From Bacillota bacterium (GTDB lineage: Bacteria; Bacillota; Desulfitobacteriia; Desulfitobacteriales; JAJXUE01), in the NCBI GenBank assembly GCA_021811155.1, contig JAJZPO010000021.1, positions 1 through 38,397 of the forward strand: a stretch of 38,397 nt of DNA, in the 5' to 3' direction. The notes under the pieces are model-generated. The model had not been told where the DNA came from. It did not search any database and was given only the letters and a program-made list of their open reading frames with translations. Made by a program: the position numbers and the translations under genes. The first letter of the stretch is position 1; each line of letters begins with the position of its first letter. Below are positions 1,522 to 13,196 of this stretch, piece by piece.

Positions 1522-2034
1522 CTACTTGTTAAACACCAGTACCCTGCCTTCCTCGCGTAAAGCCAGAACACTTTTGTCCAGCCGGTTAGCCCGCAGATTT
1601 TCCAGCATATGGCGGATAAGCTCGTCCTGTACCAATAATTCTTCTTCCGGCACCTCCTCCCCCTGGTCTGATACCAGAGTATCGAAGAAGTACTGCCTAA
1701 ACAAGTCGACCAAAAGGTTTAGCTCGTTTTGAGTGACTGTCTCAACATCCCGTTTGACCTCAAACACAACCACTCCCTCTTCCTGGCGAAAATCCAGGCT
1801 GCAAACCCTGCAGGTCCTTCCTTCCAATTGATTAAACAACTGCAAGGAAGTTTTTAACTTTTCGCAGTATTGCTCCAGGTCAGAAGCCTCTTTGATCAAA
1901 AAGAAGGTAAACTTCAACAGTTGTTCGGCCTGATCCACGTTGATTGTGCCCACTTCAGGATAGCGGACCAAAATAGAAACGAGGAGACCGACGCTGTCCG
2001 AAACCTGCCCCCCGTTTTTATACTTTAAATTCAT
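1522..2034 (-). CDS. Hypothetical protein between rny and ymdB
   Basis: 170 residues, not recognised as a named family. It has no signal peptide or membrane segment. It is acidic in its last third (GEEVPEEELLVQDEL) and probably mostly helical. Three cysteines are visible, C57 and the pair C75-x2-C78 (TCRVC), too few for a classical zinc or Fe-S site unless the protein dimerises. The start ATG has AAGGTGG 6 nt upstream, so translation is credible. It has its own terminator (1451-1479), and a large hairpin (2188-2255) separates it from rny. Its place between RNase Y and YmdB, both RNA-turnover proteins, hints at an RNA-related or regulatory job; that is inference only. Confidence 0.75.
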   Translation of the reverse strand: MNLKYKNGGQVSDSVGLLVSILVRYPEVGTINVDQAEQLLKFTFFLIKEASDLEQYCEKLKTSLQLFNQLEGRTCRVCSLDFRQEEGVVVFEVKRDVETVTQNELNLLVDLFRQYFFDTLVSDQGEEVPEEELLVQDELIRHMLENLRANRLDKSVLALREEGRVLVFNK

Positions 2035-2308: not shown

Positions 2309-3853
2309 TCATTTGGCATAGTCAATCGCTCTGGTTTCGCGGATTACTACCACTTTGATCTGACCGGGATATTCCAATTCTTCCTCAATCCGTTTCGAGA
2401 TCTCCCTGGCTACTTTGGCCGACATGGCATCGTCGATTTTGTCCGGCTTAACCATGATGCGGATTTCCCGCCCTGCTTGAATGGCAAAAGCCTTTTCCAC
2501 GCCCTCAAAGGTATCGGCGATTTCTTCCAGCTTCTGCAACCGCTTGATATAAGACTCCAAGGTTTCTCTTCTAGCCCCGGGCCGGGCAGCAGAAACCGCG
2601 TCAGCGGCTGCGACCAGCACAGCTTCAATCGTTTTCGGTTCCTCATCGCCATGATGGGCCATAATTGCATGAATCACTTCCGGTGACTCTTTGAATTTCC
2701 TTGCCAAGTCCGCCCCAATCTGCACATGGGTTCCCTCGGTGTCATGGTCCACAGCCTTGCCTAGGTCATGCAGCAATCCGGCCCGTTTGGCCAAGGGCAC
2801 ATCTGCACCAAGCTCTGCCGCCATCAGCGCAGCCAGATGAGAAACTTCCATAGAATGCTTTAGAACGTTCTGGCCGTAACTTGTCCTGAACTTCAAGCGT
2901 CCCAAGGTGCGAACCAGTTCAGGGTGCAAACCGTGCACGCCTGTTTCAAACGTGGCTTGTTCGCCCTCTTCGCGGATTTTCTGGTCAACTTCCTTCTGGG
3001 CTTTTTCCACCATTTCCTCGATTCGCGCCGGGTGGATGCGACCGTCCAAAATCAATTTTTCCAAGGCTACCCGGGCAACTTCCCTCCGGATGGGGTCAAA
3101 ACCCGATAGTATAACTGCCTCGGGGGTATCGTCAATTATAAGGTCAATTCCGGTCAGGGTTTCCAGGGTACGGATATTACGACCCTCACGCCCAATAATT
3201 CTTCCCTTCATTTCATCACTGGGCAGAGCAACCACAGATACCGTAGTTTCGGCCACGTGGTCCGCAGCACAGCGCTGAATTGCCAGGGAGATAATATTTT
3301 TTGCCCGTTTGTCAGCCTCTTCCTTAGCCTGGGTCTCAATTTCCTTAATCATCATGGCAGCTTCATGTTTAATCTCATCTTCGATATTGGACAACAAAAG
3401 CTGCCTGGCCTCTTCCGATGTCAACCCGGAAAGCCTCTCCAACTCGGTCTGCTGCTTGCCAATCAAAGCGTTCAATTCTTCGCGGGCCTTGTCTACTTCT
3501 GACTCTTTGCGGTGCAGACCCTCTTCCTTGCGTTCCAAGGTTTCTACTTTGCGATCCAGAGATTCCTCTTTTTGTACAAGCCGTCTCTCCAAACGCTGGA
3601 TTTCGTTGCGGCGTTCCCTGATCTCTTTCTCACCTTCGTTGCGCAGCTGCATTACTTCTTCCTTGGCTGCAACCACTGCCTCGCGCTTTTTCGCTTCTGC
3701 ATCCTTTTGCGCTGCGGCAACTAGGCGTTTCGCTTCTTCCTCCGCGCTGCCGATAGTTTTCTCAGCAATATTCCTGCGCACCATGTAACCGGCTCCCGCG
3801 CCGATTCCCAGACCAAGCAAACCTACCAGAACCATAATCACATTATTATCCAT
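2309..3853 (-). CDS. rny: Ribonuclease Y
   Basis: Membrane-anchored endoribonuclease that initiates mRNA decay in many Firmicutes. 514 residues, a normal length. Order: N-terminal membrane helix (about 4-24), long charged coiled coil (about 30-190), KH RNA-binding domain with [10 protein letters not shown] (217-226), then the HD catalytic domain with [12 protein letters not shown] (H362, D363). The ATG has AAGGGGGTGA closely upstream. It is separated from recX by a gene-free stretch of about 380 bp that carries a terminator (3945-3971), so it is transcribed apart from recX. ymdB nearby fits the known YmdB-RNase Y functional link. Confidence 0.98.
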
Positions 3854-3944
3854 TACTTCACCCCCTTTTCATGTCATTCGCACGTTCAAACAGCTTTTTT
3901 GATGGAAGCTAAGGCCGGGCGCGAACTGGACCTCTGCCAGGCGC

Positions 3945-3971
3945 AAAAAAAAGACCGGCAAAGCCGCTCTT
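3945..3971 (-). terminator. Rho-independent terminator in the recX-rny interval
   Basis: On the minus strand a 7-bp stem with one mismatch (GAGCGGC / GCCGGTC, loop TTT) is followed by eight T. It lies upstream of rny. It could end recX transcription, but it also forms the natural 3' end of the candidate RNA at 3945-4182. Confidence 0.8.
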
Positions 3972-4182
3972 GCGAACACTAACCACATGCCATATGCGGG
4001 CTAAAGTAAAATCAAGGTCTTCACAAGACCCAAACCTTTTCTTATATATCAAACAGCCACAAGCCGTCCCCCAAATATTTAAACCCTACCCCCAGAAAGG
4101 GAATGAGGGAAAATGGAGTCAGTTGGAAATCTATATATAAGAAACCCGCATCTGTGGATTAGCAATCCTAGACTAGCTTCTC
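3945..4182 (-). ncRNA. Candidate structured non-coding RNA (6S-like layout)
   Basis: This 238-nt stretch between recX and rny has no ORF but has the parts of an independent RNA gene. A strong promoter ends at 4189 and a U8 terminator ends at 3945. The 5' part (4145-4162) pairs with the 3' part (3979-4000) through CTAA, CCACA and ATGCGGG blocks. Directly inside this, TTTCTTATATAT (4133-4144) pairs perfectly with ATATATAAGAAA (4038-4049). The 3' side carries an extra hairpin, GGTCTT-GTG-AAGACC (4016-4030). A long rod with an asymmetric bulge containing a small 3' hairpin recalls 6S RNA, but I recognise no diagnostic 6S sequence. It may instead be an unknown small RNA or a recX 3' UTR product. 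Confidence 0.6.
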
Positions 4183-4188
4183 TCCATT

Positions 4189-4217
4189 ATTTTAAAAGAA
4201 TTTGCAAATTCTGTCAA
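4189..4217 (-). promoter_or_regulatory. Sigma-A promoter for the candidate RNA
   Basis: On the minus strand TTGACA (4212-4217), a 17-nt spacer and TAAAAT (4189-4194) form a near-consensus promoter. The -35 is 16 bases downstream of the recX stop codon. The predicted start is about 4182. No ORF follows before the terminator at 3945. Confidence 0.75.
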
Positions 4218-4232
4218 GTTAATAGCCCAAAA

Positions 4233-4748
4233 TTACTCGCTTTCCGTAAACTCCGGCTCAATATCGCTTAAAACTGTCTTTACAGTTTCATAGGAAAAAC
4301 CCCGCAGCAACAGCTTGGCTGCGATTTTCTGCATTGTTTTTAATCTTAATGTCCTGGCCGCCGTGTCGCCTGAAAGCTCGGGATTATGCCGCTGGGCCAC
4401 GCGCCAGAGTTTCGCCGCCAGCCCTGCGGCGGCGGTCAATTCGTCTTTCCCGCTGTAATGTTCCTGCAGCCCCCGCTCAGCCACATCCCTGTCAATGCCC
4501 TTTTTACTCAGTTCATGCCTGAATAGCCGCCTTCCCGTTGGTTTTGACCTGCTCCGGATATAACTCTCCACGTAGGCCCGGTCATCCAGGTAGCCCATAT
4601 CTTGCAGCCGTTCAAGGATTTGTGCCGTGATTGCAGTGTCAAAACCCTTCCGGGCCAGACGTTCCCCCAGTTCTTTTTGCGTGCGCATGCGGAAGCTCAA
4701 TAGGCGCAGGGCGTAGCCCATGGCACGTTCATAGTCAGGGTCATTCAT
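4233..4748 (-). CDS. recX: Regulatory protein RecX
   Basis: Small helical-repeat protein that binds RecA filaments and modulates recombination. I chose the ATG at 4748 (MNDPDYERAMGYALRLLS) with AAAGGGGG about 9 nt upstream, giving 171 residues. The reading frame runs open to 4847, but that extension crosses an intergenic palindrome and is unlikely to be translated. Typical RecX features follow: RMRTQKELGERLARKG, YLDDRAYVESYIRSR and GRRLFRHELSKKGI, repeating three-helix units. It follows recA at about 160 bp, with the palindrome between them, the common recA-recX arrangement. A promoter for a probable RNA begins just past its stop. Confidence 0.93.
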   Translation of the reverse strand: MNDPDYERAMGYALRLLSFRMRTQKELGERLARKGFDTAITAQILERLQDMGYLDDRAYVESYIRSRSKPTGRRLFRHELSKKGIDRDVAERGLQEHYSGKDELTAAAGLAAKLWRVAQRHNPELSGDTAARTLRLKTMQKIAAKLLLRGFSYETVKTVLSDIEPEFTESE

Positions 4749-4788
4749 GAGGCCCTGCCCCCTTTGTTCGAGGTCCGGGTCGCTAATG

Positions 4789-4820
4789 CAGAGTGTCAAG
4801 GGGACAGTCCCCTTGACACT
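4789..4820. repeat. 32-bp palindromic repeat, copy 1
   Basis: Perfect palindrome with 13-bp arms (GTGTCAAGGGGAC at 4793-4805, its complement at 4807-4819) around a single A. Positions 4789-4820 are identical to 13086-13117. It sits between recA and recX. The GTGTCAAGGGGAC style recalls REP-like elements mobilised by IS200-type (RAYT) transposases in Firmicutes; the family assignment is from memory. Confidence 0.85.
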
Positions 4821-4905
4821 CTTAAAATTCGAGGCCCGGGGTGCCAAGTCCCGTGATCCGAATCTAAGTCACAGTGTACTCCTAAAACGCGTTGGTACCT
4901 GTTTC

Positions 4906-5943
4906 TTACTCCGTCTCGTCGCTGGCGCTGGCGCTGGCGTTCTTGACTGTGCCCAGGCTCAAACTCTGGCGGATTTTTTGCTCGATTTCAGCGGTAACCC
5001 CCGGGTTCTGCTTGAGATATTCCTTGACATTTTCCCGTCCCTGGCCAAGCCGGTCGCCGTTATAAGAATACCACGCGCCCGACTTGTTGATAATGTCCAT
5101 GTCCGTGGCTACATCAATGATGCTTCCCTCACGGGAAATCCCCTCACCGTACATGATATCAAAATCGGCCTGTTTGAAGGGAGGCGCGACTTTGTTTTTT
5201 ACCACCTTGACCCTGGTGCGGTTGCCCACCATATCCTGCCCCTGTTTCAGGGTTTCCACCCTGCGGACCTCCAGCCGGATGGTCGAGTAAAATTTCAGGG
5301 CGCGTCCCCCGGTGGTGGTCTCGGGACTACCGAACATCACCCCGACCTTTTCCCGGATCTGGTTGATAAACACCGCCGTGGTGCGGGATTTGCTGATAGC
5401 ACCGGTCAGCTTGCGCAGGGCCTGGGACATCAGGCGGGCCTGCAGGCCGACGTGGGCATCTCCCATCTCCCCTTCAATTTCTGCCCGCGGCACCAGAGCC
5501 GCAACGCTGTCCACCACAATCACATCGATGGCGCCGCTGCGCACCAGTGCTTCACATATCTCCAAAGCCTGTTCGCCCGTATCGGGCTGGGCTACCAGGA
5601 GGTTGTCAATGTCAACACCCAGGGCTTTGGCATAGACCGGGTCAAGGGCATGTTCCGCATCAACAAAGGCGGCGCTGCCCCCCATCTTTTGAGCCTCGGC
5701 TATGATGTGCAGGGCAACCGTGGTTTTACCGGAAGACTCTGGTCCATAGACTTCGATTATCCTGCCGCGGGGCACGCCGCCAACTCCCAGGGCCAGGTCC
5801 AGGGCCAGGGAACCGGTCGGAATAACCTCAACCGTCATCTTGGCGGAGGCCTCTCCCAGCCTCATAATCGAACCTTTGCCAAACTGTTTTTCGATTTGAG
5901 CTAAAGCCATGTCAAGGGCTTTCGATTTGTCAGCGCCCAACAT
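4906..5943 (-). CDS. recA: Recombinase RecA
   Basis: Central recombinase and LexA co-protease. It forms ATP-dependent filaments on single-stranded DNA. 345 residues, usual length. Walker A GPESSGKT at 67-74. Typical blocks are [54 protein letters not shown] and [12 protein letters not shown]. The C-terminus is short and acidic (ASASDETE), as usual. Start ATG has GAGGAGG 7 nt upstream. A consensus promoter (5989-6017) and a LexA box (5965-5978) lie immediately upstream, so it is almost certainly SOS-induced. recX follows downstream. Confidence 0.99.
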
Positions 5944-13085: not shown

Positions 13086-13117
13086 CAGAGTGTCAAGGGG
13101 ACAGTCCCCTTGACACT
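13086..13117. repeat. 32-bp palindromic repeat, copy 2
   Basis: Identical over all 32 bases to 4789-4820, with arms GTGTCAAGGGGAC (13090-13102) and complement (13104-13116). Here it is followed by TTTTTT on the plus strand. It sits between pgsA and the terminator at 13003-13049. Nearby (13159-13175) is a GACTCCTGAC-type repeat. Confidence 0.85.
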
Positions 13118-13196
13118 TTTTTCGGGCCAGCGCCGCCTCAAAAGAAGCAAGCAGGAATCTGACTCCTGACTTCCGGCTTCCTCTTCCTCAAGCACG

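What the first reader, a model, noticed from the sequence alone, without database searches (positions are those of the whole stretch)
3945..4217. Unannotated structured RNA gene between recX and rny
A near-consensus promoter (TTGACA-N17-TAAAAT, 4189-4217) fires into a stretch with no ORF and ends at a U8 terminator (3945). Inside, two separate blocks pair at long range: 4145-4162 with 3979-4000, and directly adjacent 4133-4144 with 4038-4049 (12 perfect bp). A small 3'-side hairpin (4016-4030) sits in the bulge. This rod with an asymmetric bulge is the general layout of 6S RNA, and the A/U-rich inner duplex looks -10-like, but I see no diagnostic match. It could be a divergent 6S RNA or a new small RNA next to RNase Y, the enzyme that would degrade it.
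Basis: partly seen in the sequence, partly recalled or inferred. Interest (0 to 1): 0.8.

Follow-up and report, generated by a model that had tools for sequence, protein, structure and literature searches.

The report
RNase Y leader with on-off terminator
The stretch is almost certainly the untranslated start of the mRNA for RNase Y, the enzyme that begins mRNA breakdown; it can fold into a stop signal or a competing go-ahead shape, and an undescribed version of this switch sits in front of the RNase Y gene across many Clostridia-like bacteria.

Summary
The reading as 6S RNA does not. Rfam has no match, and 57 of 60 genomes of the order carry a canonical 6S elsewhere.

The RNA lies on the same strand as rny and ends 91 nt before its start codon. 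About 40 order relatives have the same recX-RNA-rny arrangement. Across Bacillota, a terminator lies in the last 220 nt before rny in 122 of 147 loci, against 49 of 735 shuffles; the median gap is 54 nt. Few gaps hold even a weak promoter-like match, so rny must usually be read through this terminator.

The RNA's 5' end pairs with the terminator's 5' arm or loop. The two strands coevolve (z -9.7; negative control -0.1), also when strands are swapped between nearest relatives (p 0.003). The terminator and antiterminator folds are nearly equal in energy (median difference 0.6 kcal/mol, 53 genera). A covariance model finds one copy per genome, always before rny.

Best explanation: a transcription attenuator in the rny leader. 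What it senses is inferred: most likely RNase Y activity, by analogy with rne leaders.

The parts
4189..4217 (-). sigma-A-type promoter, -35 TTGACA (4217-4212), 17-nt spacer, -10 TAAAAT (4194-4189)
   Evidence: identical hexamers and spacing in both f1 relatives; near-consensus promoter with a 17-nt spacer found before the RNA in nearly every order relative
3945..4182 (-). leader RNA (terminated form about 238 nt); start at 4182 is predicted from the -10 box
   Evidence: homologues 98% and 81% identical
4170..4180 (-). P0 5' strand (antiterminator strand): GAAGCU..UCU
   Evidence: pairs with 3970-3960 when the terminator 3' arm is absent; coevolution of this strand with the terminator region
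3960..3970 (-). P0 3' strand = terminator 5' arm and loop; shared by the two competing folds
4144..4164 (-). P1 closing stem, 5' strand
   Evidence: structure; closing stem coevolves, z -16.3
3977..4001 (-). P1 closing stem, 3' strand
4133..4143 (-). P2 inner duplex, 5' strand UUCUUAUAUAU, part of the conserved core GGUUUCUUAUA(UAU)AGAUU
4039..4049 (-). P2 inner duplex, 3' strand AUAUAUAAGAA
4050..4132 (-). apical domain closed by P2
4008..4038 (-). P3 hairpin on the 3' side between P2 and P1 (core 4015-4031)
   Evidence: equivalent hairpin at the same place in f2 leaders
3951..3971 (-). intrinsic terminator hairpin, mutually exclusive with P0
   Evidence: perfect 13-bp stem at -15.7 kcal/mol in L003
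3945..3952 (-). U8 tract of the terminator
3854..3944 (-). 91-nt spacer between terminator and rny start; ribosome-binding site GGGGGUG at about 3865-3859; no promoter found
2309..3853 (-). rny, RNase Y (RNase_Y_N, KH, HD), the regulated gene
4233..4847 (-). recX, upstream neighbour (recA 4906-5943 precedes it)

Best explanation
[quoted passage not shown] Transcription starts from the promoter at 4217-4189 (predicted start about 4182). As the RNA emerges, its 5' strand (P0+P1) can pair with the 3' part of the leader, including the 5' arm of the terminator; that blocks the terminator and RNA polymerase runs on into rny. If that pairing is prevented or broken, the terminator (3971-3945) forms and only the roughly 240-nt RNA is made. 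The two folds are nearly equal in energy, so a small input can tip the balance. Shown by sequence evidence: conserved location in cis, conserved promoter and terminator, mutually exclusive and coevolving pairings. Inferred: that the switch works in cells, and what tips it. My preferred input is RNase Y itself: spare enzyme attacks or binds the leader, probably the 5' strand or the conserved UUCUUAUA core, which favours termination and keeps RNase Y in balance (about 0.4 for this last step).
For: Location: recX-RNA-rny synteny in essentially all order relatives in which both genes were found. Model R2 hits 45 of 46 f2 genomes and 5 f3 genomes, one locus each (a second contig in G073), all just upstream of rny on the same strand (coordinates). 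Obligatory read-through: apart from one outlier of 135, the terminator-to-rny gap is 16-104 nt, and most gaps hold no promoter-like site (the ones found score 8-9 of 12). Named carriers have gaps of 24 nt (Moorella stamsii) to 61 nt (Thermincola). Terminator in 122 of 147 rny upstream regions against 49 of 735 shuffles. Mutual exclusion: the 5' strand pairs into the terminator 5' arm or loop (at least 3 pairs) in 50 of 53 genera when the 3' arm is not yet made; E(term)-E(antiterm) median -0.6 kcal/mol, IQR -3.1 to 1.5; window -77.1 against -76.5. Coevolution: cognate strands beat swapped strands, closing stem z -16.3, P0 alone z -9.7, negative control -0.1, terminator arms as positive control -9.4; nearest-relative swaps, P0 17 of 20, sign p 0.003, closing stem 21 of 24, p 0.0003. 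Column counts in f2: 79.5% of cells paired against 40-54% when slid, with a two-sided CG/UA change inside P0. Precedents: B. subtilis RNase Y cleaves its own 164-nt 5' UTR, mainly in the first 50 nt, and thereby limits its own synthesis (PMC10303841); in Synechocystis 95.9% of polymerases stop within the rne 5' UTR and stress relieves it (PMC10989929).
Against: No transcript, start site or termination has been measured. The window's terminator has a G.G mismatch, so it may be leaky. Upstream recA-recX transcripts could also feed rny in species without a recX terminator. A few gaps do hold weak promoter-like matches. RNase Y is a membrane enzyme, so cleavage during transcription is not obvious; the sensor could be something else. 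Three of 53 leaders (L074, L089, L152) show no P0 overlap, P0 alone reaches p<0.05 in only 28 of 41 order loci, and several clades have only a short leader plus terminator. Clostridium, Romboutsia and most Paenibacillus loci lack the terminator, so it is not universal.
Confidence: 0.8

Rival explanations
1. A small-molecule or ion riboswitch: the conserved core around P2 (GGUUUCUUAUA..AGAUU) binds a ligand that stabilises or destabilises the closing stem and so sets rny read-through.
For: Conserved, partly unpaired core nucleotides across families f1, f2, f4 and other Bacillota joined to a terminator/antiterminator platform.
Against: Only rny is ever downstream, whereas riboswitches usually control several transport or biosynthesis genes; no ligand is suggested by the gene.
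Confidence: 0.2
2. A stand-alone trans-acting small RNA with an ordinary terminator; rny is expressed from recA-recX read-through or leak, and the pairing of the RNA's ends is only a closing stem.
For: A strong promoter and terminator define a 238-nt unit; in the window the promoter is only 15 nt after the recX stop codon with no terminator between.
Against: Always upstream of rny, never elsewhere; terminator commonly 15-60 nt before the start codon; some genomes have a terminator-like hairpin after recX (L013-L015), so rny would have no promoter; the coevolving P0 overlaps the terminator itself.
Confidence: 0.1
3. An RNA-polymerase-binding leader: the structured RNA acts on polymerase (processive antitermination, as put RNA or EAR, or 6S-like) to govern read-through.
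For: In B. subtilis RNA polymerase pulls down rny mRNA about 64-fold enriched (PMC11077062).
Against: Bacilli-type loci in the sample (L070, L071) show no recognisable terminator version of this leader; the simple pairing switch already explains the anatomy.
Confidence: 0.06
4. A divergent 6S RNA.
For: Rod with an asymmetric 3'-side hairpin and an A/U-rich inner duplex.
Against: No RF00013 match even at E 10 in the region; canonical 6S elsewhere in 57 of 60 order genomes; inner duplex fully paired, no open central bubble; fixed position before rny.
Confidence: 0.02

Closest known systems
rne 5' UTR of Synechocystis (PMC10989929)
   Same: Leader of the main decay-initiating endoribonuclease; most polymerases stop in the leader; proposed feedback by the enzyme.
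   Different: Different enzyme (RNase E), different phylum; there termination is tied to a U-rich cleavage site, and an antiterminator pairing of the kind seen here was not among the passages read.
rne 5' UTR of E. coli (Rfam rne5, RF00040 from memory)
   Same: Cis-acting leader by which a decay enzyme controls its own level (stated in PMC10989929).
   Different: Works through mRNA decay rather than an intrinsic terminator (own knowledge); no sequence relation found by Rfam search.
rny 5' UTR of Bacillus subtilis (PMC10303841)
   Same: Leader of the same gene, sigma-A promoter, 164 nt, cleaved by RNase Y mainly in the first 50 nt, autoregulatory.
   Different: No terminator or attenuation mentioned; Bacilli-type loci in the sample show no CCGAG-type terminator.
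Terminator/antiterminator riboswitches and attenuators of Bacillota
   Same: Two mutually exclusive folds, near-equal energy, intrinsic terminator just before the ribosome-binding site.
   Different: Ligand unknown; the antiterminator strand is the RNA's own far 5' end; associated only with rny.
6S RNA (RF00013)
   Same: Long closing stem and a 3'-side hairpin.
   Different: No open bubble, no covariance-model match, coexists with true 6S in the order.

Membership tests
6S RNA (RF00013) | match to the curated covariance model | tested here: not met
6S RNA (RF00013) | being the genome's 6S gene | tested here: not met
   57 of 60 order genomes have a canonical 6S at another locus; none was found in the window's own assembly
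6S RNA (RF00013) | binds RNA polymerase and templates product RNA | not testable with these tools
   needs binding and pRNA assays
intrinsic transcription attenuator | terminator between promoter and the gene's start, with no other promoter | tested here: met
   (predicted sites only; a few gaps hold weak promoter-like matches)
intrinsic transcription attenuator | alternative pairing mutually exclusive with the terminator, conserved by coevolution | tested here: met
intrinsic transcription attenuator | regulated read-through in cells | not testable with these tools
   needs RNA-seq, Term-seq or reporter fusions
riboswitch | direct binding of a small ligand by the RNA | not testable with these tools
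   no ligand known
rne5-type RNase autoregulatory leader | sequence or structure match to Rfam families | tested here: not met
   no gathering-level match for the element in the window, 40 related loci or 10 named loci
rne5-type RNase autoregulatory leader | enzyme level controls its own leader in cis | not testable with these tools
   precedent for rny in B. subtilis only (PMC10303841)

The most novel reading that the evidence does not exclude
A widespread, undescribed class of cis-regulatory RNA in Bacillota in which RNase Y, the enzyme that starts mRNA decay, is sensed during transcription of its own leader: enzyme action on the 5' antiterminator strand flips a near-isoenergetic fold to termination, giving decay-coupled attenuation of RNase Y.
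Probability: 0.35. Interest if true: 0.85.

Novelty: new variant of a known kind. Interest (0 to 1): 0.72.

Why it matters
RNase Y sets the pace of mRNA decay in most Bacillota, and its homeostasis has been studied mainly in B. subtilis. A terminator/antiterminator switch in front of rny over a large share of the phylum would mean that its supply is set by transcription attenuation, as reported for RNase E in a cyanobacterium, suggesting that decay enzymes of unrelated families converged on leader control. It is directly testable in culturable anaerobes such as Moorella, Desulfosporosinus or Desulforamulus, and would add a class that Rfam lacks.

Tried and rejected
6S: rejected. Known Rfam families: only chance hits below threshold in the region. 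A model from the three f1 leaders alone (R1) did not find the f2/f3 leaders, because sequence turnover is fast; that negative was misleading until the intergenic regions were read by eye. Leader peptide: no conserved start codon seen in the aligned leaders; judged by eye only. Other novel-RNA surveys: three papers (PMC11109978, PMC8632094, PMC6429828) hold no mention of rny, RNase Y, recA or recX in their main text; their supplements could not be searched. The simple terminator scan mislabels the window's own terminator because of its G.G mismatch. Duplex z-scores for P0 alone are modest in single genomes (p<0.05 in 28 of 41), so the case rests on the joint coevolution test. The phylum sample includes related genomes, so the 122/147 count is not a count of independent cases.

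Full report
The observation. The window holds recA (5943-4906), recX (4847-4233), the element, then rny (3853-2309) and ymdB, all on the minus strand. Promoter, absence of ORF, long-range stems, 3'-side hairpin and U8 terminator are all present. The fold beats all but 1 of 200 shuffles. The element is single copy in its genome.

Conservation. Two family relatives carry it at 98% and 81% identity, promoter included, in the same place. A model from these three finds nothing in other families of the order, but reading the intergenic regions shows the same design in the order relatives: consensus promoter, a core such as GGUUUUCUUAUAGAUUUC whose 5' part pairs with a later GUAGGAAA, a hairpin on the 3' side in f2, a long closing stem and a terminator 16-135 nt before rny. 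In f2 the individual folds agree. The same layout, with 5' GGGAGAAACUAG and terminator CCGAGUUUCUxCUCGG, occurs before rny in f4 and in many other Bacillota families. Named carriers include Desulfosporosinus, Thermincola, Desulforamulus aeronauticus and Moorella stamsii; Clostridium, Selenomonas, Romboutsia and most Paenibacillus loci show no such terminator.

Not 6S and not in Rfam. RF00013 does not match the region, while 57 of 60 order genomes have a canonical 6S elsewhere. No Rfam family reaches threshold at the element in the window, in 40 related loci, or in 10 named loci.

Why a leader. The terminator lies before rny with a median gap of 54 nt, and few gaps hold more than a weak promoter-like match. 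In gaps of 15-40 nt, which also hold the ribosome-binding site, a separate promoter hardly fits. The covariance model R2 finds one copy per genome, always just upstream of rny and on its strand.

Why a switch. The 5' 45 nt pair with the 45 nt that end in the terminator's 5' arm and loop. Exchanging strands between genera destroys this: z -16.3 for the whole stem and -9.7 for the part that overlaps the terminator, against -0.1 for an interior segment and -9.4 for the terminator's own arms. The permutation ignores relatedness, so strands were also swapped only between nearest relatives: cognate pairs win in 21 of 24 (stem) and 17 of 20 (P0) informative pairs. Column counts on 13 f2 leaders agree. 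Folding with and without the terminator gives near-equal energies over 53 genera, median -0.6 kcal/mol; in the window -77.1 against -76.5. These are predicted energies, not measurements.

Mechanism and its limits. Sequence evidence supports a terminator/antiterminator switch in the rny leader. What moves it is not shown. Autocontrol by RNase Y is favoured because B. subtilis RNase Y cleaves its own 5' UTR, mainly in the first 50 nt (PMC10303841), which is where the antiterminator strand lies here, and because a cyanobacterial rne leader is controlled by premature termination (PMC10989929). A ligand-binding riboswitch remains open. An RNA-polymerase link is hinted at by RIP-seq in B. subtilis (PMC11077062).

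Novelty. I found no description of a terminator switch before rny in the papers searched. The library is open-access only and supplements were not searchable, so an unnamed entry in a motif list cannot be excluded. Attenuators and RNase autoregulatory leaders are known kinds; this class is a new variant.

Noticed in passing
window 4791-4821 and 13088-13118: A palindromic repeat (GAGTGTCAAGGGGACAGTCCCCTTGACACTC-like) between recA and recX; the genome holds 51 strand-wise matches with up to 2 mismatches (many are the two strands of one palindrome) against 0 for the reversed control.
   Followed up: partly
G000 whole assembly: No canonical 6S gene is found in the window's own assembly although it is rated 99.5% complete and both close relatives have one; probably an assembly gap.
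   Followed up: partly
L107, L121, L127, L144 and similar loci: Some Bacillota have only a short leader (50-100 nt) with the same CCGAG-type terminator right before the rny ribosome-binding site, possibly an ancestral or reduced form.
   Followed up: partly
L001, L003, L010-L044 P0 helix: P0 carries a mismatch at the same place in most of the order (U.U in f2 and f3, A.C in L003; in L001 the spot is a small internal loop), as if the antiterminator must stay weaker than the terminator.
   Followed up: no
L037: A second terminator-like hairpin lies between the leader terminator and rny.
   Followed up: no
window 1522-2034: A 170-aa ORF between ymdB and rny without a Pfam match.
   Followed up: no
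L180 124-282 and 5736-5893: Two TwoAYGGAY RNA (RF01731) matches flank the rny region in a Peptococcaceae MAG.
   Followed up: no
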